64,000 nt of DNA from CBDBIG01 sp965205845 [NCBI: bacterium] (GTDB taxonomy: Bacteria; SAR324), in the NCBI GenBank assembly GCA_965205845.1, contig CBDBIG010000003.1:124001-188000 (forward strand). Reading direction: 5' to 3'. Below the pieces are notes generated by a model. That model did no database searches, had not been told where the DNA came from, and saw only the letters and a list, made by a program, of their open reading frames with translations. The translations under genes were made by a program, and so were the position numbers. Shown here one piece after another: positions 1-21,407 of this stretch (its first letter is position 1; each line of letters opens with the position of its first letter).

Positions 1-751
1 TATTTTGCGTGGGTAGAGAAAACGCGTGAAAGTGCAAAAAGGTCGTAGGCAGTACGAGGATAACCCTACCAAACTGGTATTGATTGTGTTTAATCAACCC
101 TGATAACATTTGGTTTAGAGCGTGGTGCTCTTTCTCACCCAATGCATGCTGCGGGCTTTCGTCCGATGCTTGTATACGCTGCCTACCACCCCATGTCCCG
201 GTATCAACCGAAACCGCCGGGCTTCCCAGAGCCCCTTTGGGAAAGGGCCTTGGAAATGCTGACACGGCACTCACCGACACCACCTTTTGGACACCGGCCT
301 CATGGTGCCACTCAAATCCCTCCAAAAAAGGGGGAGAAAACGACAGGATATAGGCTGCGCGCTGGAAGAAGAGGCGTTCGGCGAGGGCTTGGAAAAGGTT
401 GCGCAAAACGATGAGACCTACACGGCGTGCATCCACACGAAAGCGACCACGCCTTCGTCGAGAAAGCTTCCCACCCCCGAAAAAATGACGCACACACCGC
501 CTCGATCCTGACTGAAACCCAAACAACGGAAGAAGTTTCTTGCCAAGAATCTTATGATGTTTACTAAAAAAGAAATTTCCAGGAAAAACCTTCCCTGACC
601 AGGCTTAAGACAACCAAGGTTTTCACCGATTTACCGCAACTACGTACAGGCAGCCAAGATAAGAGGTAAGGCCTCACCTCTACATGGCCACCATGAACTT
701 GTCCGTGTCTCCCAAACAACCACCCGCAAAAACATGAAACACTCAATTCTC
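1..751. other. Non-coding or unrecognised left edge
   Basis: I see no supportable gene here. Several short open frames exist on both strands, but none has a convincing ribosome binding site, a recognisable motif or a protein-like composition. The stretch lies downstream of the last gene of the minus-strand filament operon, and it shows no clear hairpin followed by a T-run that would end that operon. Confidence 0.5.
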
Positions 752-2695
752 TCAAATTGTCTCCATTTCAGTCTCTACTTCCTCTATGCCTTCTTCTTGC
801 GGGACATCACCCATCACCTCACCTCCAGAAGAAGCAAACTCACCAGCAATATCCGACCGTTCTGTCGAGCGACGACGGGAAAAAGAAGCAAACGCTTGAT
901 CTTGAAAACCAGAGGATGTGCTCGACAAAAATTCGTTTAAAACATTGGCCATGTTCATCATGGTTGCACTCTTGCGCTTAATGCTTACAATGTCGATATC
1001 CAATAGCAACCCCGGACTCATATGGTATGGGTTCACTTGCGAGGTAAACCTTTTGAACTCATTCTCCAAGAACCGCACCCGGCCTTCCACTAAAGCACGA
1101 ACCATGGGCGTCCTCCCGCCAAAAATTTTCTTCATCCTCTCACACATGATGGGAAACCGCAGTTCAATACTCTCAATCCGGGATTCGTAAGTCGAATTTT
1201 CTGCAACCACGGGTGGTTCTTCAGGATGAATAAAATGGATTTCATTCCATTTCTTTTCGTGCGGTGCTGCACCCTCCTCGCTTTCTTCTTCCTCGTCCCC
1301 ACTAAACAAAAAGCGAAACCACGAGCGACGACGTTCGGCCACCCGGCCACCCAACAGCGCACTTGAAAAATTTTCCCAGTTCTCCACACCATTGTCTTGT
1401 TGGTGCTCATCAAACATCTCTTCAACGACTTTCCATATTTCATCCACCGTACGTTGAAACTCATTTAACTGCGCCAAAAACGCTTCTTGCATTCGATGCA
1501 GTTCTACATCGGTGTAATAGTTTAGCACCATTTGATAGCGTTCATCGGGCAAACTCTCTTCATCGGCAGTTTCATACTCACGAATGATCAATCTACGGTC
1601 ATAGCGAAAATTCTCAATGTGTTGATACCCCATCCGACTCCAATCCAACACATGGGTCAACGAGTTTATGGCAGTGTTCCAACCACGGCTACGAATATTG
1701 TCTTTATCAATCACTGAAATGATGCTATCGCGTAGACCAAGGGCATCAAAATCCTCGAACTTCAGGTTATTCTCCGCACTCCCCAAACCATCAAAAACTT
1801 TTTTGGGGATGAAGGCATAACGCAACGACTCGTTATGTTCCGTGTCATCAGAAGTGTATTTCTCCAGTGCCTTAATGCGTTCAAACACTTTTTCCTCGGC
1901 AGAAATCTCCGGTTTCCCTGAATCAATCATCTCCTCGTTGAGGGCTTCGATCTCTTTATCAATCGATTCAGTAATGCGATTGGTAACAACATCTTTTAGC
2001 AGGTCTATCGCAGCCGTCTGATAAGGGTATATGCGGCTAATAAGCTCACTTTCATCTATATTGAGTGCTAATTTAAGCATCATCACATTTTCAGGTTTTT
2101 GCGGATGATCTCTAAAAGAGCACTTGGCAATAGCGTAAGCATTTTCACCACGCACAAAGGCACCCACATCCGTCTTGCGACGCAGCAGACTGTTGGTAGT
2201 GGTTTCTAAATCATTCATTTCACGCTGTACATGACCATGTAAGTGCCCATACATATTAACGATCGAACGCTCAAGCTCACCTGTATGGAATTTGTCAGAC
2301 CCCCCAACACGATCTAACAAATAAGAAATAGCACGTGGGCTATAGCGATTCAAACTACGCATCTCTTCCATATCGACCAAGTCGCGCACCTTCTTGCCCA
2401 TCTCGTCCTCAACCGTGGTCAAGTAGCGGTTAAGCATGTTTTGCATATTTTGATTATAGTAATTATGCAATTTAGACTTAACGGTCGTCATCACCTCCAT
2501 TTTGCTCAACACCTCCGGTGGCAACTTGGAATGGATGTGATTAAGTATTTTGTCTACCTCCTCATCAACAAAGAGGCGCCCCTCCATGTATTCATCACGT
2601 TGATCTCGGTTGATACTATTACGTGATCCAACTGCACTGGGAATCTCTGGGTGGACAACGTTTGGGCCGCGAGTAAGAATGTTGTCGGCGGACAT
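752..2695 (-). CDS. cfpA: CfpA-like cytoplasmic filament protein, copy 1
   Basis: A 647-residue protein without signal peptide or membrane segment, rich in charged residues and predicted from its heptad-like composition to be largely helical. The N-terminus carries RGPNVVHPEIPSAVGSRNS, and the C-terminal part contains NPYHMSPGLLLDI and SIKRK near residues 565-585. It is clearly paralogous to the protein at 6580-8403 over its whole length. I recall this architecture from the spirochete cytoplasmic filament protein CfpA, whose polymers form ribbons under the inner membrane. That identification is from memory, not a search. The ATG at 2695 is chosen over a TTG one codon upstream because AAAAGGAG lies seven bases before it. 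It is the last gene of a four-gene minus-strand operon, 76 bp after the PPDK-like gene. An acidic Glu-rich insert (EEEESEEG) near residue 470 is absent from the other copy. Confidence 0.75.
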   Translation of the reverse strand: MSADNILTRGPNVVHPEIPSAVGSRNSINRDQRDEYMEGRLFVDEEVDKILNHIHSKLPPEVLSKMEVMTTVKSKLHNYYNQNMQNMLNRYLTTVEDEMGKKVRDLVDMEEMRSLNRYSPRAISYLLDRVGGSDKFHTGELERSIVNMYGHLHGHVQREMNDLETTTNSLLRRKTDVGAFVRGENAYAIAKCSFRDHPQKPENVMMLKLALNIDESELISRIYPYQTAAIDLLKDVVTNRITESIDKEIEALNEEMIDSGKPEISAEEKVFERIKALEKYTSDDTEHNESLRYAFIPKKVFDGLGSAENNLKFEDFDALGLRDSIISVIDKDNIRSRGWNTAINSLTHVLDWSRMGYQHIENFRYDRRLIIREYETADEESLPDERYQMVLNYYTDVELHRMQEAFLAQLNEFQRTVDEIWKVVEEMFDEHQQDNGVENWENFSSALLGGRVAERRRSWFRFLFSGDEEEESEEGAAPHEKKWNEIHFIHPEEPPVVAENSTYESRIESIELRFPIMCERMKKIFGGRTPMVRALVEGRVRFLENEFKRFTSQVNPYHMSPGLLLDIDIVSIKRKSATMMNMANVLNEFLSSTSSGFQDQAFASFSRRRSTERSDIAGEFASSGGEVMGDVPQEEGIEEVETEMETI

Positions 2696-2771
2696 CAATC
2701 GCTCCTTTTATTTACTGATGGGTGCACTAGGTGCCTTATAGGTTGATACAGGGATACAATTCAAGAACAAA

Positions 2772-5357
2772 TTAGCCCCTTCGGGCTATATCGAGTTTCA
2801 TGGCAGACAATTTTGCAATGGGCACTCCGTACGGGGCACTTACCACAAAATCTAGTCCAGTTTTATACGCAAAATCAATATTTTCGGGCTCGTAAACGTA
2901 TGACCCAACCCCCCCGATCTCAATATCTGGTCTAATCATACGTCCATACTGCACCACAGCAGAAACCAACTCTTTCACGGGCACAGAAAGAACCTCGAAG
3001 GGGTTGTCCTTCAAGATATCATACTGATTATATGCAGGCAAAAACGTGTTTAGATCATCGGCTGACATCCCGTTGGCGGTCTGTGTCAGCATGGTGAAAT
3101 CAATCACAAAAAACTCAGCTTGTTTTGCTAGATGCCCAGCCATCAAAGTGGCAGCGGGTAAATCAATCACGGCACCCACACGGTAATTCAGTTCGGTATT
3201 CGTTTCACCCAATTCTTTCAGCACTTGCTGTTCAATCCCACGCACACCATGAATAACGTTGCTTTCAATATTACGTCCATGGCGAATAAAGCGCATCTCC
3301 GCATCTCCAACGACACCAGAGACGCACAAATCAAAATCAAGTTTGACCCCCGATTTTCGAGCTCGGCAAGCACCATAAAAAATACCCCCAGAAATTGCCT
3401 GATAAATCTCAGGGTAGGCAATGCAAATTCTCCCACCACGTTGCCCCATCATGGGGTTTACGTTCCGCAAGTTGCTGGCTCTAGAATTAAAATGCTCAAT
3501 CTCAACCCCATGCAACTGGGATATTTCTTGAAACAACCGCTCACGAGCATGACTATCGACAGGCAAAAACTCAATCAACGGGGTGTTCAACAAGCGTATG
3601 ATAACCTTTTTACCATCCATTTTCTTAAAAAGATCTTCGCAAACACCACTCAACACGTCACGAAACCTTTTTAGCGCAGAAGTATATTTTTCTTTCTCCC
3701 CATACAATAAAACAACCTCCTGGAACAAGCGCGCTGTCTTCTCGTCGCGCATCATCGCTTCAACAGGCAGCAAGCCGATACCACCAGCACCCAGACGAAT
3801 GCTTGAATCCACATCACCAACCGTAGCAGCCAATCCCAATATTCGCAGATTCGTTCCCACACCATCCGTCACGTCAATCGCGCGTATAAATTCCTCCAAT
3901 CCATTTTTTGCTGTATCAGGAAACTGCATACTGGCTTCACCAAACCATACACTAGGCTCAGTGTACGTTGGGGATTCAAGGGAAATTATATCCCACTCAT
4001 TCACCCGTTCCCCGCCAATGGTGGCGTAACCGTCAAAAAACTGGACATCAGAATACAGCAAGCAAGGTTTACGCAAACTTCTCGAAACCACAGGTGCGTG
4101 AGAAGAATACCCGCCGACCGAAGCAAGCACACCCGCACACATCTCAATGCCTTCAACATCTCCGGCATCCGTATGAGGCATTACCAAAATAAAATCTGCT
4201 TTTTCACCTTTCAAGGAACAACGGCGATGCTCTGCCAACAAAGCATGGGTGCTAAAACACACGCGGCCAACGGCAGCCCCAGGTGACCCTGCAATACCCC
4301 CCTTGATCATTTTTAGATTGGTAACACTTGCATGATCAATAACAGGGTGTAACAAATCTTGCATTTGGCCCGCGGGTACTGCATGCACAATGTCTTCACG
4401 CGTTAACAACTTTTTTCGGTATAGATCAAGCAGCGTTCTAATCTCAGCTTGAGTTGATTTGCCATCCACGGGGGTTTGCTCAATCAGCCATATTTTGCCA
4501 TCTTCAATGGTGAATTTAATCTCACGAATATCTTTGAAACTGGATTCAAGCAAACTACACATTTCTTGCAGCTGCTTTAAATAATTGACATCTAATTTTT
4601 CCAATGGCCGTCCACTTTCCTTTGAAACATCAAAAGAATTCATCGAAAACACACCATTAATGCCTGCTGAACCGGTCACAATATCGCGTGAATACAGATG
4701 CCCACTCCCAGAATTCTCATTCCAGTTGCCATAGACCAGCAGTTGTACCAGTAGGGCCGCCTCAATGTCCTCGTTCATGTCATCGGCCAAATACCGTTTT
4801 GCGGTCTGGCTTAACACTGTTTGCAATTGCTCATAACCATCTTGAGGAAAATCTTTGATAGGCCCTTGCAAATAGGCTTGACATATCTCCTTGCTTGCTG
4901 TTTTCCCTTGCACAGCATCCTCGATGCTCTTGACGTCCCGCCCCAAAAAAACGCTGCCAAATCTCTCCAATAACACCTTGTATTCATGATACGTAAACTC
5001 ATCCCCCCAGCGTTTGGCAAGGCCTTCGGCAACACGATCATTCATCCCAATGGTATGGGTAGATCTAAATGTACCGATCTGGATAGAGGGAGAGACAACC
5101 ACTTTAAGTAGCATTGGTTTTTCAGGATTGCCAAATTCTCTGCCTGCAATGCTCTCTATTTTTCGAATGGCGGGCTTCAACGCAGCCAAATCCAACTCGA
5201 CCAGCGCAGGCAAGTCCTTTGACTCAATCAAAAAGCCCGGCACTAAAGGTGTATTCAAACTTGCCAACTGCAGCAAATTGCGCCCACGCAAGCCAAACCG
5301 CTCTTGCAGGTCATTTCCTTCAACATGTTCTTTCTGATTAAAATGGAAAAATTGCAT
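2772..5357 (-). CDS. Pyruvate phosphate dikinase-like protein, probably catalytically dead
   Basis: An 861-residue protein with PPDK domain order: a reduced ATP-grasp part (GLRGRNLLQLASLNTPLVPG near 22-41; VQLLVYGNWNENSGSG near 204), the swivelling phosphohistidine domain (GGYSSHAPVV, His about 420) and the PEP-binding barrel (LLNTPLIEFLP near 589; NPMMGQRGGR near 635; SAPYGVPIAKL near the end). The phospho-accepting His is kept, but key barrel residues are changed: the RTEHMF arginine is Pro (GLLPVEAMM), the GTNDLTQ Asn-Asp pair is lost (DFTMLTQ), and the ICGEHGG cysteine is Val (GGVGSYVYEP, about residue 817). The SVRSGA arginine region of the ATP site is also absent. Known PPDKs interconvert pyruvate/ATP/Pi and PEP/AMP/PPi. 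Here I infer a regulatory or structural pseudoenzyme. No Shine-Dalgarno is visible before the ATG. It sits between two CfpA-like genes. Confidence 0.88.
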   Translation of the reverse strand: MQFFHFNQKEHVEGNDLQERFGLRGRNLLQLASLNTPLVPGFLIESKDLPALVELDLAALKPAIRKIESIAGREFGNPEKPMLLKVVVSPSIQIGTFRSTHTIGMNDRVAEGLAKRWGDEFTYHEYKVLLERFGSVFLGRDVKSIEDAVQGKTASKEICQAYLQGPIKDFPQDGYEQLQTVLSQTAKRYLADDMNEDIEAALLVQLLVYGNWNENSGSGHLYSRDIVTGSAGINGVFSMNSFDVSKESGRPLEKLDVNYLKQLQEMCSLLESSFKDIREIKFTIEDGKIWLIEQTPVDGKSTQAEIRTLLDLYRKKLLTREDIVHAVPAGQMQDLLHPVIDHASVTNLKMIKGGIAGSPGAAVGRVCFSTHALLAEHRRCSLKGEKADFILVMPHTDAGDVEGIEMCAGVLASVGGYSSHAPVVSRSLRKPCLLYSDVQFFDGYATIGGERVNEWDIISLESPTYTEPSVWFGEASMQFPDTAKNGLEEFIRAIDVTDGVGTNLRILGLAATVGDVDSSIRLGAGGIGLLPVEAMMRDEKTARLFQEVVLLYGEKEKYTSALKRFRDVLSGVCEDLFKKMDGKKVIIRLLNTPLIEFLPVDSHARERLFQEISQLHGVEIEHFNSRASNLRNVNPMMGQRGGRICIAYPEIYQAISGGIFYGACRARKSGVKLDFDLCVSGVVGDAEMRFIRHGRNIESNVIHGVRGIEQQVLKELGETNTELNYRVGAVIDLPAATLMAGHLAKQAEFFVIDFTMLTQTANGMSADDLNTFLPAYNQYDILKDNPFEVLSVPVKELVSAVVQYGRMIRPDIEIGGVGSYVYEPENIDFAYKTGLDFVVSAPYGVPIAKLSAMKLDIARRG
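2773..2788 (-). terminator. Small hairpin overlapping the PPDK-like stop codon
   Basis: On the minus strand TAGCCC-GAAG-GGGCTA forms a six-base-pair stem with a tetraloop that includes the TAA stop of the PPDK-like gene. The following T-rich stretch is weak, so this is more likely an RNA-stabilising or attenuating element before the downstream cfpA-like gene than a full terminator. Confidence 0.35.
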
Positions 5358-5534
5358 GGCAACATATGTTTCTTTATCAAATTTTCCTCATAGCAGAACA
5401 ATGTACAACTGAAACATGCAACAAGGTATTGGGTTTAAATCTCTTGATCCAGCAAGCCAAAGAAATCCATCACAGAAATATGCCCCATTTTAAACGAAGC
5501 AAAACGCCGCGGCGCAAACAACAAGCATCGCAAC

Positions 5535-6518
5535 CTAGAATAACTTTAACACTTTATTCACATCCACCTTAATAAAGATCTCATACCTCATGCTAGCACC
5601 TTCATATAAATAGCGCTGAAGCTTTGCGACACCCTTTATTTCTTCCCCAGAAATACTGATAAGCAAAACATCACCGTGTTTTACCTTGCCCCATTTAAAC
5701 AAGGCGTTGATGTTGTTTACCTTTTCACCATCATGAAAAATATGCACATCGAGGCCAGCATACTTTGCTTTGTAACTCTCAACAATGTTTTTCCACGCCT
5801 CCACGTTTCCATTATGAAACAACTCATTGGTAACCTGCACGCTATACTTCGGGGTCATGACAATCTTCTTCCCTGAACTCGTCGCTTTGGGGGGAGGCGA
5901 TTTCCCCTTAACAGCAGGTTTTCTGGCTGGCACAGCTGTGGATTTAGAATGTGCAGCAGATTTGCTGGCAGCAGAGGTAATTTTAGGTTTGGGTGCAGGT
6001 TTAGGTCTTGGTGGAGCTCCGCCTAAGTTTTCCAACCCACTCGGAGTAAGGCCTTCCAATACGGCAAAAAGAGCTCTCGCGGCTCTCTGCTCAAGATCAG
6101 CATCCTGAACATCGTACGCTTTAGCGTACACCACCATCAACTCATCGGGCGTAACCTCTTGTACGTTTTCCCAATGTTTTTTTACCTTTGGGTTAATCAA
6201 AGTCACACCCATTTGCGGTTGATGGTACGCCACAACCATGTCGACACGATTCCACTTGGACACCACTTCACACAACGCGTCAAAATCGTTGTACCTTTCG
6301 CGCACATTGCGCGACACCACCGTATACCCCATCCGCTCAATAATTACAGCATTGAGCAAAGGCCCTATTTGCATCTTACTGACATTGTCCATTGCGTCAA
6401 TAATGTTTGCTAAATTGCTGGTTTTCAACATCCTAACAATGCCGGTCACCAAACGAAAATGCCCCAGCGAGCGATTGAACCCTCCACGGCTGCTCAAAGA
6501 AGAAAAATCATTAATCAC
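5535..6518 (-). CDS. Two-domain linker protein of the filament operon
   Basis: A 327-residue cytosolic protein that I cannot assign to a named family. It has three parts: an N-terminal helical domain (residues about 1-170, with GHFRLVTGIVRMLKTSNLA and VVSKWNRVDMVVAYHQP), a Pro/Ala/Lys-rich low-complexity linker (about 172-230), and a compact C-terminal domain (about 231-327, with VTNELFHNGNVEAWKNI, HIFHDGEKVNNINALFKWG and LQRYLYEGASMRYEIF). The linker suggests two folded domains tethered flexibly, as in an adaptor. The start is GTG with AGGGTG close upstream. It lies between the second CfpA-like gene and the PPDK-like gene. As I recall it, an uncharacterised gene sits at the same place between ppdK and cfpA in Treponema pallidum, which supports a shared function. 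Confidence 0.9.
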   Translation of the reverse strand: MINDFSSLSSRGGFNRSLGHFRLVTGIVRMLKTSNLANIIDAMDNVSKMQIGPLLNAVIIERMGYTVVSRNVRERYNDFDALCEVVSKWNRVDMVVAYHQPQMGVTLINPKVKKHWENVQEVTPDELMVVYAKAYDVQDADLEQRAARALFAVLEGLTPSGLENLGGAPPRPKPAPKPKITSAASKSAAHSKSTAVPARKPAVKGKSPPPKATSSGKKIVMTPKYSVQVTNELFHNGNVEAWKNIVESYKAKYAGLDVHIFHDGEKVNNINALFKWGKVKHGDVLLISISGEEIKGVAKLQRYLYEGASMRYEIFIKVDVNKVLKLF

Positions 6519-6579
6519 TGATCACCCTAAATAAAACCTTTCCTATCAACTATCAATAGCCCATGAAGAAAATGAAACC

Positions 6580-8403
6580 TCAAGAATTCGCTGCTTCCCC
6601 CCCAAACGCATCGCTACCCTCATCCTTGATGTTGGCGTGTCTGCGGCTTCCAGTAACTACAGGCTGCCTATAGCCACTCGAAATGCGTGACAAAAACTCG
6701 CTCATCACATTCGACATTCCAGCAACAGTCACCTGCCGGCGCTTGATGCTCGTCAGTTTGAGTTGAATCATCAACCCTGGCTGCAAGTGGTATGGGTTCA
6801 CAACACTCGAAAAACGAATAAACTCATCCTCTAAAAAAAATAACCTGCTCTCGACAACTTCTCTATTTACTGGATGACGTTTCCCAAAAATTTGCGTTAG
6901 GCGCCTTCTAATAATCAAGAAACGCTCGCGAAACTCCGTGCTTAACTCTTCATAAGTGCGATTCATCTCCTCCAAGGTGCTTAGCTCACGCTGAATAAAC
7001 ACCACTTCATTCCATTTGCGATTCGGTTCAACGCTTTCATCGCGATGAAACCAACCAGAACCCCCGCGACCTACCGTCTCACTCACAACATCACCCCAGT
7101 CGCGTAAATGGCTAGAAGTTTTCTCTTCGAGGTACACCTGTTCAACCACATTCCAAAGGCGCATTATCTCGCGTTGAAATTCGAGCAGTTGTGCAGTATA
7201 GGCAGCCTTTTGGGCTCGCATTCCATCCGCATCTACGTATTCCATGTAAATCTCAAAACGCTCATCAGGCAACGTATCTTGCAGTGTGCTTTCATACTCA
7301 CGCAACACCATTTTACGCGCCAAGCGATAGTTTTCAATATGCTGATAACCCATGCGGCAGTTGTCTAAAATCGAGGTGATCGAATTAATTGCCGTATACC
7401 AACCGCGGGTGCGCAACGCTTCATGCTCAAGCATCTCACTTGATGCCACTTCAAAAGTGAGCGGATCAGCCCCTTCACCACGCAAATCGGGCGTAATATT
7501 GCGAATACGCTCAAGCATGTCCTGGGAAAGCAGCTGATTAATGAGCGCATTGTCACCATCCTCCACAGCCAACCCCTGCTCGACCGCTTTTAATTTTTCA
7601 AACACCGCCTCGTTCGGGCTCAAAGCTTTGCGCCCCTCGCCTTCCAATTGGCGATTAATCTCGTCAATTTCCTTATCTACAAGTTCTCGCAAGCGCTTGG
7701 CAACCACATCTTTAATCAAAAATTCTGTGGGCAACAAATGGTGTACAATCGGGGATATCAACTCAGATTCCAACACATTAATTGCAATATCAATGTCCAC
7801 GACCTCTTCTGGTTTTCGCACATTGTCATGGAAACTGGCTCTCACCACCGCATACGCATTGGCACCATTGATAAAGCCTCCCACGTCAGACTGCCTGGTT
7901 AAAATCCGAATGGTCGCGTTTTCAAAATCGGCGGAACCACGCGCAACATGACCTTGCAAATGCCCCATAATATTCACCGTGGATTTCTCGACCTCGGCGG
8001 TGTTGAAATCAGCACCACCCATTTGATTCAACAACCCAGCCACTTCCCGCGGCGTATAGCGATTCAATGCGTGATGTTCCTCTTTGTCCACCATATCGCG
8101 CACCTTCTTAGACATCTCATCTTCAACGGTGGTCAGGTAGCGGCTGAGCATATTTTGCATGCTTTGGTTAAAATAGGTATGCAAATGCGACTTTACATTC
8201 CCCTGCACAGTCATGTCTTGCAACACTTCAGGAGGCAGTTTGGCTTGAATATGGTTGAGAATCTTATCCACCTCTTCATCAATCATCGACCGTGATTCCA
8301 CGTATTCATCGCGGTCATCACGGTTTACGCTGTTGCGAGACCCTACCGCGCTAGGCGTCTCTGGATGAATTAAATTTGGTCCTCTGCGAAAATCACTACC
8401 CAT
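6580..8403 (-). CDS. cfpA: CfpA-like cytoplasmic filament protein, copy 2
   Basis: A 607-residue paralogue of the protein at 752-2695, roughly half identical by eye in the N-terminal third. Shared blocks include EEVDKILNHI, MQNMLSRYLTTVEDEM, KKVRDMVDKEEH, LNRYTPREV, RMGYQHIENYR, LPDERFE and NPYHLQPGLMI. Like its partner it has no signal peptide or membrane helix and looks almost entirely helical. It resembles spirochete CfpA as I remember it. It is the first gene of the operon, with AGGAAACGTC before its ATG and 61 bp before the linker gene. It lacks the acidic insert of copy 1 and has a different C-terminal tail. The pair could form a heteropolymer or two distinct filaments; that is inference. 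Confidence 0.75.
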   Translation of the reverse strand: MGSDFRRGPNLIHPETPSAVGSRNSVNRDDRDEYVESRSMIDEEVDKILNHIQAKLPPEVLQDMTVQGNVKSHLHTYFNQSMQNMLSRYLTTVEDEMSKKVRDMVDKEEHHALNRYTPREVAGLLNQMGGADFNTAEVEKSTVNIMGHLQGHVARGSADFENATIRILTRQSDVGGFINGANAYAVVRASFHDNVRKPEEVVDIDIAINVLESELISPIVHHLLPTEFLIKDVVAKRLRELVDKEIDEINRQLEGEGRKALSPNEAVFEKLKAVEQGLAVEDGDNALINQLLSQDMLERIRNITPDLRGEGADPLTFEVASSEMLEHEALRTRGWYTAINSITSILDNCRMGYQHIENYRLARKMVLREYESTLQDTLPDERFEIYMEYVDADGMRAQKAAYTAQLLEFQREIMRLWNVVEQVYLEEKTSSHLRDWGDVVSETVGRGGSGWFHRDESVEPNRKWNEVVFIQRELSTLEEMNRTYEELSTEFRERFLIIRRRLTQIFGKRHPVNREVVESRLFFLEDEFIRFSSVVNPYHLQPGLMIQLKLTSIKRRQVTVAGMSNVMSEFLSRISSGYRQPVVTGSRRHANIKDEGSDAFGGEAANS

Positions 8404-10488: not shown

Positions 10489-11844
10489 TTAACTTGATGC
10501 CGGAGGTAGCGTAACTGAAGTGGGACCGACAGAGTCTTGAAACTGGTCTGGAAAGGTGCCACTTCGCTTTCTACCATATTTCCCCCAACAAAAAACATCG
10601 CCATTTTCAACAAGGGCACAGCTGTGATAGTGCGATGCAGACACTGCTTCCACCTGAGGGTTAGCCCCTGGCATCGACACGGATACAGGCAAAGATGGGG
10701 AAGGGGTGTTGCCATCACCTAGTTGGCCGTGGTTGTTGCGCCCCCAGCACATGGCGCGGCCCTCTACCACGGCACAACTGTGATAATAACCAGCACTCAC
10801 TGCTTCCACCTGAGGGTTAGCCCCTGGCATCGACACGGATACAGGCAAAGATGGGGAGGCGGTGTTGCCATTGCCTAACTGACCGTAGTCGTTGCGCCCC
10901 CAGCACATGACACCCGTATTCAATTCGCCACTCTTTTTTACCAAGGCGCAGGCATGGTTCCCGCCCAACGAGATAGCCTTGACACCACTCTCAAGCCCTT
11001 GCACTTGTGTAGGGGTGTAAGACGAAGAACCAGCGGTGGCAGATCCAAGCATCCCATACGAATTTATCCCCCAACATTTGGCTGCTCCATCGATGATGGC
11101 ACAGGCACTTGTGGAACCTATGTCAATCGCACGCACCCCGCTCGATAAACCTGTTGAGGATACGGAATAAAATCCAGCCTCTTTCCTTCCATTGCCCAGT
11201 TGACCATGGACGTTATTGCCCCAACACATGGCCTCCTCGTCGAGGATGGCACAAGCACTCCTGGGGCCAATGCTTACGCCACTTACCCCACGGGGTAGAT
11301 TTTTCACATACCTCCCCTCCCATCTGGAATCGACCGGATCAGAGGGATTCTCCGCCTTGAAATCATCATAAAAACCCTTTCCCCAACAGATAACGCGGCC
11401 ATCACGGATAACACAACCATGCTGAGATCCGTTGGCAGATATCGCGGTAATTGTGGATGCCGCCTTGGTTGTGGACGCCGGTTGGGGTGGCATGGTAACT
11501 TCGCGCGCCTCGATGGCTGCGGGTAATCTCGAAGAAGAGACACGCAAGCAAAACACGCGATTGCTTTTAAGTACGCACGCCCTCTTGTCATTTCTGCTCA
11601 TCATAACAAGCTCCTCAAGCAAAGGGCCAATAGGTGCCGCCCCACCTGAGCCTCCCGTCAAATTATCCTCCGGGATGGCGTTCGAGGCACCGGAGGCAGA
11701 TGATGCCTCATCTGTGTTTGCAACAGGGGAACCACCACCTTCGGAGCAACTAAATAGAAAAAGGGCACCCGTGAACACCACAGCGAGGGCAATGTTTTTG
11801 GAGGGTATGCCTCGTAAACTGCAGCAGGATTTTTGTAAAAACAT
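10489..11844 (-). CDS. RCC1-repeat lipoprotein 1
   Basis: About 451 residues beginning at an ATG followed by a signal peptide with lipobox LFLFSC and an acidic/Ser/Gly-rich linker, so it should be an outer-membrane or periplasmic lipoprotein. The rest consists of RCC1/BNR-type repeats with the recurring pattern CAI...CWGxNxxGQLGxG, which fold into a beta-propeller. The last two repeats are almost identical at the DNA level over about 150 bp (SVSMPGANPQVEAVSA occurs twice), indicating recent internal duplication. An in-frame upstream extension to 11907 would bury the signal peptide and is rejected. Bacterial RCC1 lipoproteins have no single known role; adhesion or protein binding is usual speculation. 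A second RCC1 lipoprotein lies 0.6 kb away on the same strand. Confidence 0.85.
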   Translation of the reverse strand: MFLQKSCCSLRGIPSKNIALAVVFTGALFLFSCSEGGGSPVANTDEASSASGASNAIPEDNLTGGSGGAAPIGPLLEELVMMSRNDKRACVLKSNRVFCLRVSSSRLPAAIEAREVTMPPQPASTTKAASTITAISANGSQHGCVIRDGRVICWGKGFYDDFKAENPSDPVDSRWEGRYVKNLPRGVSGVSIGPRSACAILDEEAMCWGNNVHGQLGNGRKEAGFYSVSSTGLSSGVRAIDIGSTSACAIIDGAAKCWGINSYGMLGSATAGSSSYTPTQVQGLESGVKAISLGGNHACALVKKSGELNTGVMCWGRNDYGQLGNGNTASPSLPVSVSMPGANPQVEAVSAGYYHSCAVVEGRAMCWGRNNHGQLGDGNTPSPSLPVSVSMPGANPQVEAVSASHYHSCALVENGDVFCWGKYGRKRSGTFPDQFQDSVGPTSVTLPPASS

Positions 11845-12468
11845 TAGAAACAATCTTTCTTCATAATTAACACGATACAATGTACGGTGCAGACCAACGC
11901 GGTTCACGCTATGTCACACAAACCAAGATTCATGCAACAACAACACCATTGCTCATCAAAGCAGCAAAAACACTCGCGCACCCTTTAGTACACAAAAGAG
12001 CAAAAACGCAACCCCGACGTACCAATATACAGTGAATAAATCAAAACCGTAAGACAAACTATAAAAATTACAGCCCCCCACCCATATCGACGCACACTCC
12101 ATTCGAATCCAAACCATCTACAACCCGCCCAAATAGAGACACACTGAGAAGATGCAATGAGAAACCGACGACCTCTATGCCTTGGATGCCAAGCGCACGG
12201 GTATAAACCGTCCACATGCCCCTACCCACGGTTATCCTGCAAAGGGTCAGCGGTGCTTCGGGATTCGAAGCTTGGCTAAGCCTGTGGTCGCAAAACCATG
12301 CGTGCAAAAAACCGGCTCGCGCAATCCCCGCAAACCCACGGCAATGGTTAAGCCAGGGTATCCCCCCTTATAAACAAAGCTTTGCCCCCCCCGCGCACCC
12401 CCTTGGCTTATTCAGGAGGGTATCCCCCCTTATAAACAAAGCTTTGCCCCCCCGCACCCCCTTAAAGC
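11845..12468. other. Spacer between the two RCC1 genes
   Basis: Apart from the 62-bp tandem duplication at its right end, I see no gene or recognised RNA here. Short open frames on both strands lack motifs or ribosome binding sites. Confidence 0.5.
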
Positions 12469-12478
12469 CTATTCAGGC
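12355..12478. repeat. 62-bp tandem duplication at the 3' end of an RCC1 gene
   Basis: Two copies of about 62 bp (12355-12416 and 12417-12478), each starting AGGGTATCCCCCC and containing the palindrome CAAAGCTTTG. The right copy includes the last codons and stop of the RCC1 gene at 12469, so the duplication copied a gene end into the spacer. Confidence 0.8.
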
Positions 12479-13899
12479 ACGCCAGGGAACTCTAAAAAGG
12501 GGGCGTTCTCGAGGGTTTCTGTGGGGTCGTTGCCATAGATTTTGTCGCCATTACCAAAGCCCAGTTCAGCCTCGGTTAAGCCCCCAGCGATTCCAATACC
12601 CAAGTTGTTTGTCGTACCGGTAGAACGGGGCATGTTATTGCCCACACATTTAAGATTGCCTACGTAGTTAAAGCATAGCCCATCCTTATCGCCGTGTATG
12701 GCAACCACACGCGCATTGTGAAACACCCTGGTTGGGCGCAGAAGGTTGTTTGTATTCCCCAGCCGGTAAATGTCATCGGCGGGGTTGCTGTTGGAACCCC
12801 AGCAAAACACCTCAAGCTGCGCGTTGATGGTGCAAGTTCTGTCTTCAGGCGTAATAATACCCAAAACCCTCCCCAACGAGGCAGCTTTTGCAGGAGGCAC
12901 TACCTTGACGGGGCGCGATGCGGACCGGGTGCTGCCATTGCCCACTTCGCCCTTAATGTTTTCCCCCCAACAATACACCGTGGTTGCTTCACCAAGCGCG
13001 GCGCAAGTGTGCCTTTTGCCGGCAGATGCTGTGCGGACATCGCTTAAAAAACCATCTCCACTGGGGGTGCGCACCCTGCCTGGTGGCGCCGAAGATCTAT
13101 CACTTGTATTACCTCGACCCAAATAATGGCCTCTAACGGGGAAAAAACCACTTCTCCAGGTCACCAAGGTAGCATCGCGCATTAACACCACCCAGCCACT
13201 GATAAGGCGCGCAGCACCCCTTAGTGTTTCTTGACTTCCCATTGGGCGGTCGGCCGCCTCAACGGCCAAAGGCGTCGGGGAGCCCTCGTTTGGCGAGGCC
13301 CCCGGTACCGCGGGCACTGAGCCTGGGCCAACGCCAAGGCGATAGTGAGTGCTGGAACCGCCCCAGCAGGCAACCTCGCCTTGGTCGCCAAACACGGCAC
13401 AAAAGGTCCCATTTCCCGCTGCAATGGAGGTAACCCCCGTTAGGGTGCCCATATCCCCTAACCTCACCACAGGTCCGGGAACGGGTGTGTAGGAACGACC
13501 GGCAGGTGGCGGTAGCCTAATTATACCACGCCCCAATTGGTAATATTCGTTATTGCCTCTACCAGCATCTTTACCTCCCCAGCATTGGAGCCCACCGTTG
13601 ATTAGGCGCGCACAAAGCGTGTGTTCTGTTGCCGCCATTTGAACAATGTCTGCCGTGTTGAAACCCTCCAAGGTAACAAGTACTGGGCGGGTGGGGTAGG
13701 GACCATTTGAATATACCGTTGCTGGAAGCCCAGCATACTGTCCCCAACAATACAACGGACCATGGCTCCATTTCACACACTTGCCACTCCCTCGGTGGAC
13801 CACCACGGACTCGATAAATAATTTCTCGCGTCTATCTTGGCCTGGCGTAAAGCAGCTGGCCACAAGCAATAAAAGGCTCAATTTGAGGGCAAGGCGCAT
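12469..13899 (-). CDS. RCC1-repeat lipoprotein 2
   Basis: A 476-residue protein beginning MRLALKLSLLLLVASC, a short lipoprotein signal peptide with lipobox LVASC. The mature part has RCC1-like repeats with paired Cys (for example CARLINGGLQCWG, CAVFGDQGEVACWG, CAALGEATTVYCWG, CTINAQLEVFCWG), likely a disulphide-bearing beta-propeller in the envelope. The repeats are more diverged than in its neighbour at 10489-11844, so the two are paralogues rather than a fresh duplication. The stop codon lies inside a 62-bp tandem duplication. Function is unknown. Confidence 0.85.
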   Translation of the reverse strand: MRLALKLSLLLLVASCFTPGQDRREKLFIESVVVHRGSGKCVKWSHGPLYCWGQYAGLPATVYSNGPYPTRPVLVTLEGFNTADIVQMAATEHTLCARLINGGLQCWGGKDAGRGNNEYYQLGRGIIRLPPPAGRSYTPVPGPVVRLGDMGTLTGVTSIAAGNGTFCAVFGDQGEVACWGGSSTHYRLGVGPGSVPAVPGASPNEGSPTPLAVEAADRPMGSQETLRGAARLISGWVVLMRDATLVTWRSGFFPVRGHYLGRGNTSDRSSAPPGRVRTPSGDGFLSDVRTASAGKRHTCAALGEATTVYCWGENIKGEVGNGSTRSASRPVKVVPPAKAASLGRVLGIITPEDRTCTINAQLEVFCWGSNSNPADDIYRLGNTNNLLRPTRVFHNARVVAIHGDKDGLCFNYVGNLKCVGNNMPRSTGTTNNLGIGIAGGLTEAELGFGNGDKIYGNDPTETLENAPFLEFPGVPE

Positions 13900-19759: not shown

Positions 19760-20692
19760 TTACTCCTTCAAGGTGGCCAGTTTGGTTTGGGTGGCAAGGT
19801 AGTCGGGGTTGTTGTTGGGCGGGGTTGTGGGACCAACGCCGGTTCCATGGGTTTCACTTTGTAAAGCGGTGAGAACGTCATGCAAGATTGTGATGAGTTC
19901 TGCTACGGGTGTCCCCGCTTTCAAGCGTCCTTGAGCAGTGATTTCAATGCTTGCCAGGGGTGTTTTTGTGGCAACGCTTTCGCCTGCAATGGTGTTGGCC
20001 GCCCTCCCTGCGAGCACAGTATGATCACCCCCCACAGCGTGCTCTGCGCTCCCTAGGGTTGCTTGACGCAGGTCGCCCCCCGTGCTTACGACCCTGCTTC
20101 CCAACACGCTGGCGCTGCTGCTGCCTGCCACTTTGAGGCTGGCATCGCCTTCAATGGTGAGGTCTGCTTTCCCTGTGGTTGTTTTAAGTACCTGGGTTTG
20201 GAGGGTTGCGCTGTGGGCGTCTAAAGAAATATTGGCGGGGCTGCAAAGGTCGACGCGGCCATCACTCCCAAAGCGCAGTTGTGCCCCTGATGTATGGGAA
20301 ATGGCAATTTCCCCCGTTTTTAAGGCGGGAATGGGCGAACTGGAGCCTGTGGCGTAAAGGGCTGTGATGTAGGGTGCATGGGGGTTCCCATTGGCAAAAG
20401 CGAGGATCACATGGGTTCCAAGGTCGGGCAGGGCATAAAAGCCTGTGCCGTTTCCAGCCCCTGGAACGGGCAAAGGGACGTCCTGCAAAACGGGGGCGTT
20501 TTTATCGGGCTGGCCTTTGGCATTGAGCAATTGGACATCGGCGGCATAGCGTGGCAAAAAGGCATCGCCTAAGGTTTCTTCCTGGGGCGGTTCAGGTATC
20601 CCAACCACGCGTCCGAGGCGTGGCGCATAGTGCTGTGGAAAACCAGGGAAGGCACGCCGCATCCACTTTTGAAAGGCCATGAGCGAAAACAT
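19760..20692 (-). CDS. Phage baseplate spike protein (gpV/gp45-like)
   Basis: About 310 residues starting MFSLMAFQKWMRRAFPGF, immediately after the stop of the upstream gene. The N-terminal OB-fold part has RLGRVVGIPEPPQEETLGDA and VPLPVPGAGNGTGFYALPDL followed by GTHVILAFANGNPHAPYITA. The C-terminal half is a run of short Gly/Ser/Thr-rich beta repeats (DLTIEGDASLKVAGSSSAS, TLGSAEHAVGGDHTVLAG) that would form a trimeric beta-helix needle. This matches the spike of contractile phage tails. It is one of four neighbouring tail-type genes without capsid, terminase, sheath or tube genes in the window, so it is a prophage remnant or part of a tail-like particle. Confidence 0.8.
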   Translation of the reverse strand: MFSLMAFQKWMRRAFPGFPQHYAPRLGRVVGIPEPPQEETLGDAFLPRYAADVQLLNAKGQPDKNAPVLQDVPLPVPGAGNGTGFYALPDLGTHVILAFANGNPHAPYITALYATGSSSPIPALKTGEIAISHTSGAQLRFGSDGRVDLCSPANISLDAHSATLQTQVLKTTTGKADLTIEGDASLKVAGSSSASVLGSRVVSTGGDLRQATLGSAEHAVGGDHTVLAGRAANTIAGESVATKTPLASIEITAQGRLKAGTPVAELITILHDVLTALQSETHGTGVGPTTPPNNNPDYLATQTKLATLKE

Positions 20693-20693
20693 A

Positions 20694-21407
20694 TTACCAC
20701 TGCAACTCGGTGTGGGGTGGGAAGTGGAGCACGCGGACAATGCGGCGCACGGTGCCGTTGAGCGCGAGGCGCATGCCTGGACGCCAATGAGGATTTGCAA
20801 CCATGCGTAAGCGTCCGTCGGGCTGATGGCGCCCAATCAGTGCTCTGGGCACGCTTAAGGCCCTCCCATAAAAGGGGGTGTGCTGGCGTTGCCCCCAAAA
20901 CACGCGCCCATCGGGGAGGGCCCACCAGCCGGCGTCCTCAATCCCCCATGCATGGCACATCGAATCCAATGCTTCGCGCCCGCTACCCAAAGAAACAAAG
21001 CGCGGGACACGCTGGGTAAGGTAGGGGGCTTTTTGAGGAAGGAGCAAGGGGAGCCCACACGCCCCTTCGACCTTGCGAAGGACATCGGCTGGGGTGGGGG
21101 CGTAGAGTGAAAGGTGCGCAGGCAAATCCAAGGCTGCAGCCGCACAACGCCCCGTGAACTGCGCCTCGTCGCCATCCAAGCGGAGCACATCGGCCAGCAC
21201 GCCCATAAACACTTGTACCAAAGGCTCTTTTGTGTCTGCGAGGCCAAGGGCAATCCGCAAAGGGATCCCAAGGGTTGGCAAGGCTTTTTCCCTTCCCCAG
21301 TGGGTGCGCAGTTCTGCCAAGCCCACCGCGTGTTCACCGAGGGCTATTTGGGAAGTGTTTGCCTGGAATGCTTCCCCCGCAAGGGTGATCAAGGTTTCGA
21401 TACGCAT
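20694..21407 (-). CDS. Phage baseplate hub-like protein
   Basis: A 237-residue protein preceding the spike gene, as hub genes do in contractile-tail clusters. Motifs include LYAPTPADVLRKVEGACGL and SMCHAWGIEDAGWWALPDG, followed by NPHWRPGMRLALNG, reminiscent of the late-control/hub (gpD or gp44-like) fold in which a sugar-binding-like beta domain ends with a coordinate loop. It is shorter than typical hub proteins (about 350 residues), so either it is a compact version or part has been lost. Its stop is followed after one base by the ATG of the spike gene. Confidence 0.6.
   Translation of the reverse strand: MRIETLITLAGEAFQANTSQIALGEHAVGLAELRTHWGREKALPTLGIPLRIALGLADTKEPLVQVFMGVLADVLRLDGDEAQFTGRCAAAALDLPAHLSLYAPTPADVLRKVEGACGLPLLLPQKAPYLTQRVPRFVSLGSGREALDSMCHAWGIEDAGWWALPDGRVFWGQRQHTPFYGRALSVPRALIGRHQPDGRLRMVANPHWRPGMRLALNGTVRRIVRVLHFPPHTELQW

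What the first reader, a model, noticed from the sequence alone, without database searches (positions are those of the whole stretch)
752..8403. Spirochete-like cytoplasmic filament operon in a non-spirochete context
Two large helical paralogues with CfpA-like blocks, a PPDK-like protein and an unknown two-domain protein form one minus-strand operon. From memory, T. pallidum has ppdK (TP0746), an unknown gene (TP0747) and cfpA (TP0748) side by side. The same order here, outside an otherwise spirochete-like window, suggests a transferable filament module with its own accessory proteins, perhaps a cytoskeleton linked to motility or cell shape.
Basis: partly seen in the sequence, partly recalled or inferred. 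Interest (0 to 1): 0.88.

Follow-up and report, generated by a model that had tools for sequence, protein, structure and literature searches.

The report
Treponema-type filament operon in SAR324
This is a real bacterial cytoskeleton operon like the one in Treponema, here in the distantly related group SAR324, and its two partner genes look like a worn-down phosphate relay whose 'enzyme', annotated as a metabolic enzyme in the syphilis bacterium, seems to have lost the half that would make ATP.

Summary
Both large proteins pass NCBI's equivalog cut-off for CfpA, the Treponema cytoplasmic filament protein (727 and 606 bits, cut-off 500). The window is SAR324-like. The order cfpA / unknown protein / PPDK-like recurs in SAR324 and Spirochaetota, including a T. 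pallidum-like genome (TP0748-0747-0746).

The partners:
(1) The 'PPDK' beside CfpA is not an ordinary PPDK. The ATP-grasp lysine is gone in all 33 distinct copies that reach it (of 36). The swivel histidine is kept in 36 of 36. Every PEP-site residue checked is kept in 25 of 25 copies outside the window's clade; the window's clade (11) has lost the PEP site too.
(2) The unknown protein is predicted to hold two HPr-like domains, the first clearer than the second. The second carries a histidine kept in 31 of 31 copies.
(3) Of 392 Spirochaetota genomes, 134 have the unknown protein, 136 CfpA, 131 both.

Published T. denticola data show CfpA and this 'PPDK' as major bands of one envelope fraction, and the three genes co-repressed.

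Best reading: a filament with an enzyme-I-like/HPr-like partner pair, PEP-competent in spirochaetes, a scaffold here. The relay is inferred. 'Transferable module' and 'motility' are not supported.

The parts
6580..8403 (-). cfpA paralogue 1 (607 aa), first gene of the operon
   Evidence: NF040882 605.5 bits, cut-off 500; groups with the operon-first copies of related SAR324 genomes
5535..6518 (-). partner protein (327 aa): two predicted HPr-like domains joined by a Pro/Ala/Lys-rich linker; counterpart of T. pallidum TP0747
   Evidence: AF2 model; structural matches; synteny
6045..6326 (-). first HPr-fold domain (aa 65-158), no conserved histidine seen at the HPr site
   Evidence: VIA-align Z 9.2, rmsd 1.9, 79 of 83 HPr residues aligned; the top 30 rows, all HPr-family, fall on this domain
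5592..5858 (-). second, probably HPr-like domain (aa 221-309), motif NELFHNGNVEAW
   Evidence: HPr 1qfr Z 5.2, rmsd 2.6, 81 aligned; but a phosphoglucosamine mutase scores Z 6.2 on the same stretch; HPr-like order of strands and helices
5814..5816 (-). His235 codon of the partner protein, invariant, just before the first helix of the second domain
   Evidence: 31 of 31 aligned cfpA-linked copies; helix 236-252
2772..5357 (-). PPDK-like protein (861 aa) with degraded ATP-grasp half, kept swivel histidine and, in this lineage, lost PEP site; counterpart of T. pallidum TP0746 'ppdK'
   Evidence: TIGR01828 423 bits, cut-off 843; residue tables
4098..4100 (-). swivel-domain histidine codon (His420, GGYSSHAPVV) of the PPDK-like protein
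   Evidence: kept in 36 of 36 distinct cfpA-type PPDK-like proteins
3090..3101 (-). place of the PPDK GTND loop, here D-F-T-M: PEP/metal site lost
   Evidence: Asp lost in 11 of 11 window-type copies, kept in 25 of 25 distinct others
752..2698 (-). cfpA paralogue 2 (648 aa), last gene of the operon seen in the window
   Evidence: NF040882 726.6 bits; grouped with the solitary locus-A copies of deep SAR324 in the tree (support 99)

Best explanation
It is a CfpA cytoplasmic-filament operon of a SAR324 bacterium. Two CfpA paralogues build or tune an intermediate-filament-like ribbon. The two genes between them encode filament-associated partners descended from PEP phosphotransfer proteins: a PPDK whose ATP-grasp half has degraded, and an adapter made of two HPr-like domains. 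In spirochaetes and deep SAR324 the PPDK-derived protein keeps the PEP site and the swivel histidine, so I infer that it works like PTS enzyme I: it takes phosphate from PEP on its histidine and hands it to the invariant histidine of the adapter's second domain, so that the PEP/pyruvate state alters bridging, anchoring or assembly of the CfpA ribbon. In the window's lineage the PEP site has also decayed, so here the pair most likely persists as a structural scaffold of the filament. Shown: homology, order, co-occurrence, residue loss and retention. Predicted: the HPr folds, firmly for the first domain, less so for the second. Inferred: binding to the filament, phosphotransfer, and its effect.
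For: CfpA membership. Triad order in SAR324 and Spirochaetota. Partner protein in 134 and CfpA in 136 of 392 Spirochaetota, 131 shared; in SAR324 the partner and the PPDK-like protein are found in the same 16 of 52 genomes, all among the 20 with CfpA. Residues (with the duplicate row L121 taken out): ATP-grasp Lys kept in 0 of 33 copies that reach it, 25 of 25 in ordinary PPDKs; swivel His 36 of 36; the seven PEP-site positions checked all kept in 25 of 25 copies outside the window's clade. HPr fold of the first domain: top 30 rows of the structural re-alignment, Z up to 9.2. His235 is kept in 31 of 31 aligned cfpA-linked copies but in 1 of 9 stand-alone copies of the same domain, so the fold alone does not demand it. 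In T. denticola TDE0844 'pyruvate phosphate dikinase' and TDE0842 CfpA are bands 1 and 3 of the 16 major envelope-fraction proteins (PMC3931704, passages), and TDE0842-0844 are repressed together (PMC3914990, passages).
Against: PMC3398590 (passages) describes the treponemal filaments as of single-protein composition, which leaves no room for partners inside purified filaments. For the second domain a phosphoglucosamine mutase (3i3w, Z 6.2) scores above the best HPr row (1qfr, Z 5.2), and unrelated chains reach Z 5.0. No sequence method finds HPr significantly: no PTS-HPr hit in 15 members; hhalign out of register with a narrow HPr profile, and with wider profiles roughly in register but at probabilities under 10% (P 0.008 and 0.004, against 0.13 and 0.4 for reversed HPr). 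Foldseek's best HPr E-value is 0.009, and the tool notes that unmatched models often reach Z 7 to 8. The HPr His-x-Arg-Pro motif is absent, and hhalign puts His235 one residue off HPr's histidine. No enzyme I N-terminal domain is listed. In the window's clade the histidines stay although the PEP site is gone, so they may be structural. Two deep SAR324 copies have Arg in the R92 column, and three of 25 ordinary PPDKs also lack Glu316, so not every ATP-site position is diagnostic. Four SAR324 genomes with CfpA lack both partners.
Confidence: 0.42

Rival explanations
1. The PPDK-like and HPr-like proteins are structural components or anchors of the CfpA ribbon everywhere; the old catalytic residues are leftovers and no phosphate moves.
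For: Abundant in the T. denticola envelope fraction beside CfpA; in 11 of 11 window-type copies the PEP-site Arg553 and Asp760 are gone but the gene is kept, at full length in the copies not cut by a contig end; the ATP half is degraded in every cfpA-type copy read yet kept.
Against: All seven PEP-site positions, the catalytic Cys included, are kept in 25 of 25 other copies across two phyla, and 87% of the columns invariant in ordinary PPDKs survive in the PEP barrel of the spirochaete copies against 36% in the ATP-grasp part (whose 19 rows included one wrong ORF, L189). Filaments described as single-protein (PMC3398590).
Confidence: 0.35
2. The PPDK-like protein is a working metabolic PPDK that merely sits beside cfpA, as annotated in T. 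pallidum.
For: Annotation in the papers seen; PMC10013896 states the reaction PEP + AMP + PPi to pyruvate + ATP for TP0746 (passages).
Against: The Lys22, Arg92, Glu316 and Arg330 positions are changed in 19 of 19 spirochaete copies, the T. pallidum-like one included; the 19 copies score 587-722 bits, under the 843 cut-off, while 17 of the 19 genomes hold a separate full PPDK.
Confidence: 0.06
3. The operon is a recently transferred filament module.
For: CfpA is known from Treponema and sits here in a non-spirochaete.
Against: Single deep split between SAR324 and spirochaete CfpA, PPDK-like clades by lineage with open branching order, housekeeping flanks, no plasmid or viral match in the searches made.
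Confidence: 0.08

Closest known systems
Treponema CfpA cytoplasmic filament and its neighbours (T. pallidum TP0748-TP0747-TP0746; T. denticola TDE0842-0844)
   Same: Equivalog-level CfpA, same gene order, same partner families (T. denticola order from PMC3914990)
   Different: CfpA-bearing SAR324 genomes mostly have three CfpA copies instead of one; in the window's clade two of them flank the partners in one operon; among the copies read, the PEP site is lost only in the window's clade
Pyruvate, phosphate dikinase (TIGR01828; PDB 1vbg, 1kbl)
   Same: Full-length homology, swivel histidine
   Different: ATP-grasp Lys lost in every cfpA-type copy that reaches it, PEP-site residues lost as well in the window
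PTS enzyme I and HPr
   Same: PEP barrel plus phospho-His swivel beside an HPr-like partner with a conserved histidine
   Different: No enzyme I N-terminal domain listed, no HxRP motif, two HPr-like domains in one chain; ordinary HPr is present separately in 47 of 52 SAR324 genomes

Membership tests
CfpA (cytoplasmic filament protein) | NCBIfam NF040882 equivalog score over 500 bits | tested here: met
   726.6 and 605.5 bits; 136 of 392 Spirochaetota and 20 of 52 SAR324 genomes also over cut-off
CfpA (cytoplasmic filament protein) | long helical, filament-type protein without enzyme or membrane fold | tested here: inconclusive
   AF2 pLDDT 71, mainly long helices with short strands; Foldseek gave no PDB match under E 0.001
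CfpA (cytoplasmic filament protein) | assembles into cytoplasmic ribbons in the cell | not testable with these tools
   needs microscopy of a SAR324 cell or in vitro assembly
Pyruvate, phosphate dikinase | TIGR01828 over 843 bits | tested here: not met
   423 bits for the window protein; 587-722 for 19 spirochaete cfpA-type copies
Pyruvate, phosphate dikinase | ATP-grasp residues (Lys22, Arg92; numbers and roles recalled) | tested here: not met
   Lys in 0 of 33 distinct copies that reach it, Arg92 in 2 of 35, against 25 of 25 ordinary PPDKs for both
Pyruvate, phosphate dikinase | PEP-site residues and catalytic Cys | tested here: not met
   window: the Arg553, Asp760 and Cys822 positions all changed; kept in 25 of 25 distinct copies outside the window's clade
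HPr (PTS phosphocarrier) | HPr fold, first domain (aa 65-158) | tested here: met
   by predicted structure only: Z 9.2, 79 of 83 residues, top 30 rows all HPr-family
HPr (PTS phosphocarrier) | HPr fold, second domain (aa 221-309) | tested here: inconclusive
   HPr Z 5.2 but a phosphoglucosamine mutase Z 6.2 on the same stretch; strand and helix order fits HPr
HPr (PTS phosphocarrier) | Pfam PF00381 match and His-x-Arg-Pro site | tested here: not met
   no PF00381 hit in 15 members at E up to 10; the motif in the second domain is HNGN
PTS enzyme I | N-terminal HPr-binding domain | tested here: not met
   no such Pfam match at E up to 1 in the PPDK-like protein
PTS enzyme I / HPr relay | PEP-dependent His phosphorylation and transfer | not testable with these tools
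   needs biochemistry

The most novel reading that the evidence does not exclude
CfpA-bearing bacteria run a dedicated PEP-to-histidine phosphorelay on a cytoskeletal filament: a PPDK that lost its ATP half became an enzyme-I-like donor, a tandem-HPr adapter is the acceptor, and the filament's bridging or anchoring follows the PEP/pyruvate state. The T. pallidum 'PPDK' would then be a cytoskeletal regulator and not a glycolytic ATP maker.
Probability: 0.32. Interest if true: 0.92.

Novelty: new variant of a known kind. Interest (0 to 1): 0.77.

Why it matters
A T. denticola cfpA mutant lacks filaments, shows chromosome condensation and filamentation, and caused no bone loss above sham in mice (PMC3398590, passages), but how the filament is controlled was not explained in any passage I saw. 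Two conserved partners with readable ancestry give candidates for the bridging and anchoring components named in a paper title (Izard 2004, seen only in a reference list). TP0746 is treated as the PPDK of the syphilis bacterium. The T. pallidum-like genome holds no PPDK over the family's cut-off, so models of its energy metabolism that use PPDK would rest on a protein whose ATP site appears dead. The work also places the filament set outside the spirochaetes, in SAR324.

Tried and rejected
Sequence-only search for HPr: Pfam, a PDB profile search (only two weak NusA rows, E about 0.004, judged chance) and hhalign gave no significant HPr call. CfpA fold search: no useful PDB match. CfpA in plasmids and viral contigs: none; the first genome scan used two exact peptide patterns only, so its 19 loci are not a full census. 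Flagella as the explanation of CfpA presence: rejected, flhA in 51 of 52. Linking the stand-alone HPr-like domain to the filament: no evidence, its histidine is mostly replaced. The open frame at window 1-526 as a continuation of the operon (GspL-like gene, as in relatives): not supported. The residue counts held one wrong ORF (L189), corrected; the domain percentages still include it. In one search the rows L015 and L121 are the same locus; I count them once, so its 7 'deep' rows become 6 and its 37 cfpA-type rows 36. Copies that do not reach a position were left out of that count: 3 gaps in the Lys column, 1 in the Arg92 column. The partner split over two frames (L161) was left out of the 31-row alignment. 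Literature: SAR324 with 'cytoplasmic filament' 0 papers; TP0747 0; CfpA with Treponema and HPr 0; 'phosphate dikinase' with 'cytoplasmic filament' 4, passages of all four seen. These searches cover only the open-licence library.
Full report
What is there. The window's first 8.4 kb hold four minus-strand genes in tight order: a 607-aa and a 648-aa CfpA paralogue (46% identical) flanking a 327-aa protein and an 861-aa PPDK-like protein. NCBIfam calls both large proteins CfpA at equivalog level, 606 and 727 bits against a cut-off of 500. The one scan of the genome collection with the pair as query (two peptide patterns) returned 19 loci, all from MAGs titled SAR324, Lambdaproteobacteria, Deltaproteobacteria or just 'bacterium'; those used in the tree fall together with the SAR324-titled ones. 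The window's own genome is not held, so 'SAR324-like' is an inference from these neighbours and the tree.

Distribution. In the phylum of a SAR324 genome 20 of 52 genomes have CfpA over the cut-off, mostly three copies each, and none of the 14 control genomes does. A search of 288 relatives of the same genome returned the same 20 and no others; kinship is not told there, but most of the rest must lie outside the 52. In Spirochaetota 136 of 392 sampled genomes have it, nearly always one copy. The 48 SAR324 rows (47 different) and 20 spirochaete rows lie on two sides of one branch (support 100, quick tree). This fits descent from a deep common source or one ancient transfer, and not a moving module.

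Synteny. In deep SAR324 genomes three cfp loci exist: A (before a GspL-like, a weakly GspM-like and a YceG/MltG gene), B (cfp, partner, PPDK-like, with ccm-type genes and lon around), and C (near succinyl-CoA synthetase genes); one locus of each type was named with Pfam. In the window's clade the order is cfp-partner-PPDK-like-cfp and, in several relatives, the locus-A genes follow. That looks like a fusion of B and A. The tree supports it for the second cfp (locus-A group, support 99); the first cfp and the deep locus-B copies are not joined or separated with support. From spirochaetes I fetched 20 cfpA neighbourhoods of 19 genomes, out of 136 with CfpA, mainly those on long contigs. In 17 of 20 the partner gene is next to cfpA and the PPDK-like gene follows, 13 directly and 4 some kilobases on; in the one of these four looked up, the genes between include a VWA and a GGDEF protein (L167). 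The exceptions are a second cfpA copy (L159) and two 1.8 Mb genomes (L173, L174) in which partner and PPDK-like genes lie on other contigs.

Co-occurrence. The partner protein is in 134 of the same 392 Spirochaetota genomes; 131 also have CfpA, 5 have CfpA alone and 3 the partner alone. In SAR324 the partner and the cfpA-type PPDK-like protein (16 genomes with a match of 875 bits or more; next best 586) occupy the same 16 genomes, all CfpA-positive; G008, G009, G050 and G051 have CfpA without them. Many are draft genomes, so single absences mean little. Counts ignore kinship.

The PPDK-like protein. One search aligned 62 rows: 25 ordinary PPDKs of the two phyla (three of them divergent), 19 spirochaete, 7 deep SAR324 (two of these the same locus, so 6) and 11 window-type cfpA-type proteins. 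Ordinary PPDKs keep the ATP-grasp Lys in 25 of 25; the cfpA-type keep it in 0 of 33 that reach it. Arg92 is kept in 2 of 35, both in the two most divergent deep copies. Glu316 and Arg330 are lost in 19 of 19 spirochaete copies, but a few ordinary PPDKs vary there too (22 and 23 of 25 keep them). The swivel histidine is kept in 36 of 36. The PEP-site set (Arg553, Arg609, Arg657, Glu736, Asn759, Asp760, Cys822 in the numbering of L124) is complete in 25 of 25 copies outside the window's clade. In the 11 window-type copies Arg553 and Asp760 are lost in all and Cys822 in 5. The window protein itself reads D-F-T-M in place of GTND and has lost the Cys. So the ATP half had decayed in all lineages read, and the PEP half only in the window's clade. 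The cfpA-type proteins form one clade apart from ordinary PPDKs (support 100, quick tree with some long branches); the order of its three parts is unresolved. In 17 of 19 spirochaete genomes an ordinary PPDK over the cut-off exists besides; the T. pallidum-like G343 and G416 have none. G343's only other match is a 113-bit one, presumably enzyme I, which I did not check.

The partner protein. AlphaFold2 gives two compact domains (pLDDT 78.5). In the structural re-alignment the top 30 rows are HPr-family chains, all on residues 62-158 (best Z 9.2, rmsd 1.9, 79 of 83 residues). On the second domain the best row is a phosphoglucosamine mutase (Z 6.2), then HPr (Z 5.2, 81 residues) and, lower, Crh (Z 4.8), with unrelated chains near 5.0; each entry is shown once, at its best place, so HPr rows for the second domain may be hidden. 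The second domain has the strand and helix order of HPr (the comparison is recalled). Sequence comparison cannot prove either: with the widest profiles both domains align with HPr better than with reversed HPr, at low probability, and narrower profiles failed. His235 is invariant in 31 of 31 aligned triad copies and stands directly before the first helix, but lies one residue off HPr's histidine in hhalign and lacks the Arg-Pro that follows it in HPr. Nine stand-alone copies of this domain elsewhere in SAR324 have Tyr, Phe or Met there in eight and His in one, so the histidine goes with the filament setting.

Independent data in print, seen as passages. In T. denticola the envelope fraction's 16 major bands include TDE0844 'pyruvate phosphate dikinase' (band 1) and TDE0842 CfpA (band 3); the authors explain CfpA by membrane anchoring, and the passages I saw do not discuss the dikinase (PMC3931704). 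TDE0842, TDE0843 and TDE0844 are repressed together by partner bacteria (PMC3914990). A cfpA mutant lacks filaments and shows chromosome condensation and filamentation; the same paper speaks of the filaments' single protein composition (PMC3398590). PMC10013896 treats TP0746 as a glycolytic PPDK.

How it most likely works. CfpA polymerises into cytoplasmic ribbons (established in Treponema). The PPDK-like protein and the HPr-like protein ride on, bridge or anchor these ribbons (suggested by co-occurrence, order, co-regulation and co-fractionation; not shown, and the single-protein statement speaks against an intrinsic part). Where the PEP site is whole, the swivel histidine could be phosphorylated by PEP but the degraded ATP-grasp could not use the phosphate; the obvious acceptor is the conserved histidine next door (inferred). 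In the window's clade the PEP site is gone, so a scaffold role is the simpler reading there. I give the combined reading 0.42 and the purely structural reading 0.35.

Novelty. CfpA filaments are known, and the NCBI model already scores SAR324 members as CfpA, so the filament half is a known kind in an unexpected phylum. The reinterpretation of the two partners, and with it of TP0746, I did not meet in the listings or in the passages of nine papers; I read no paper in full.

Noticed in passing
L064-L072 (nine SAR324 genomes): A stand-alone copy of the partner's C-terminal domain, its histidine replaced in eight of nine. An AICARFT/IMPCHase-like gene stands beside it in two of three loci checked and a UbiE methyltransferase gene in two of two.
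   Followed up: partly
L156:2672-5377 (TP0746 equivalent): Published SNVs recur in TP0746 in cultured T. pallidum (A869T, reaching 77-83% in two long cultures, and P655S, PMC10013896; A425T, PMC12152143; passages).
   Followed up: no
L167:10026-15372, and L156:8715-9386: Between partner and PPDK-like gene of one spirochaete locus lie a VWA-domain protein and a GAF-GGDEF diguanylate cyclase, with gene sizes alike in L169; a VWA gene is also near cfpA in the T. pallidum-like locus.
   Followed up: partly
window 10489-11907 and 12469-13899: Two adjacent proteins; the first has RCC1 repeats, the second looks similar and both look exported, by eye only.
   Followed up: no
window 19760-20836: A protein with a phage-baseplate/type VI spike OB-domain match over its Pfam cut-off (32.7 against 23.8 bits).
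   Followed up: no
G008:C3:90441-92161 and L161:9032-9960: A cfpA copy and a partner gene are each split between two reading frames; left as found.
   Followed up: no
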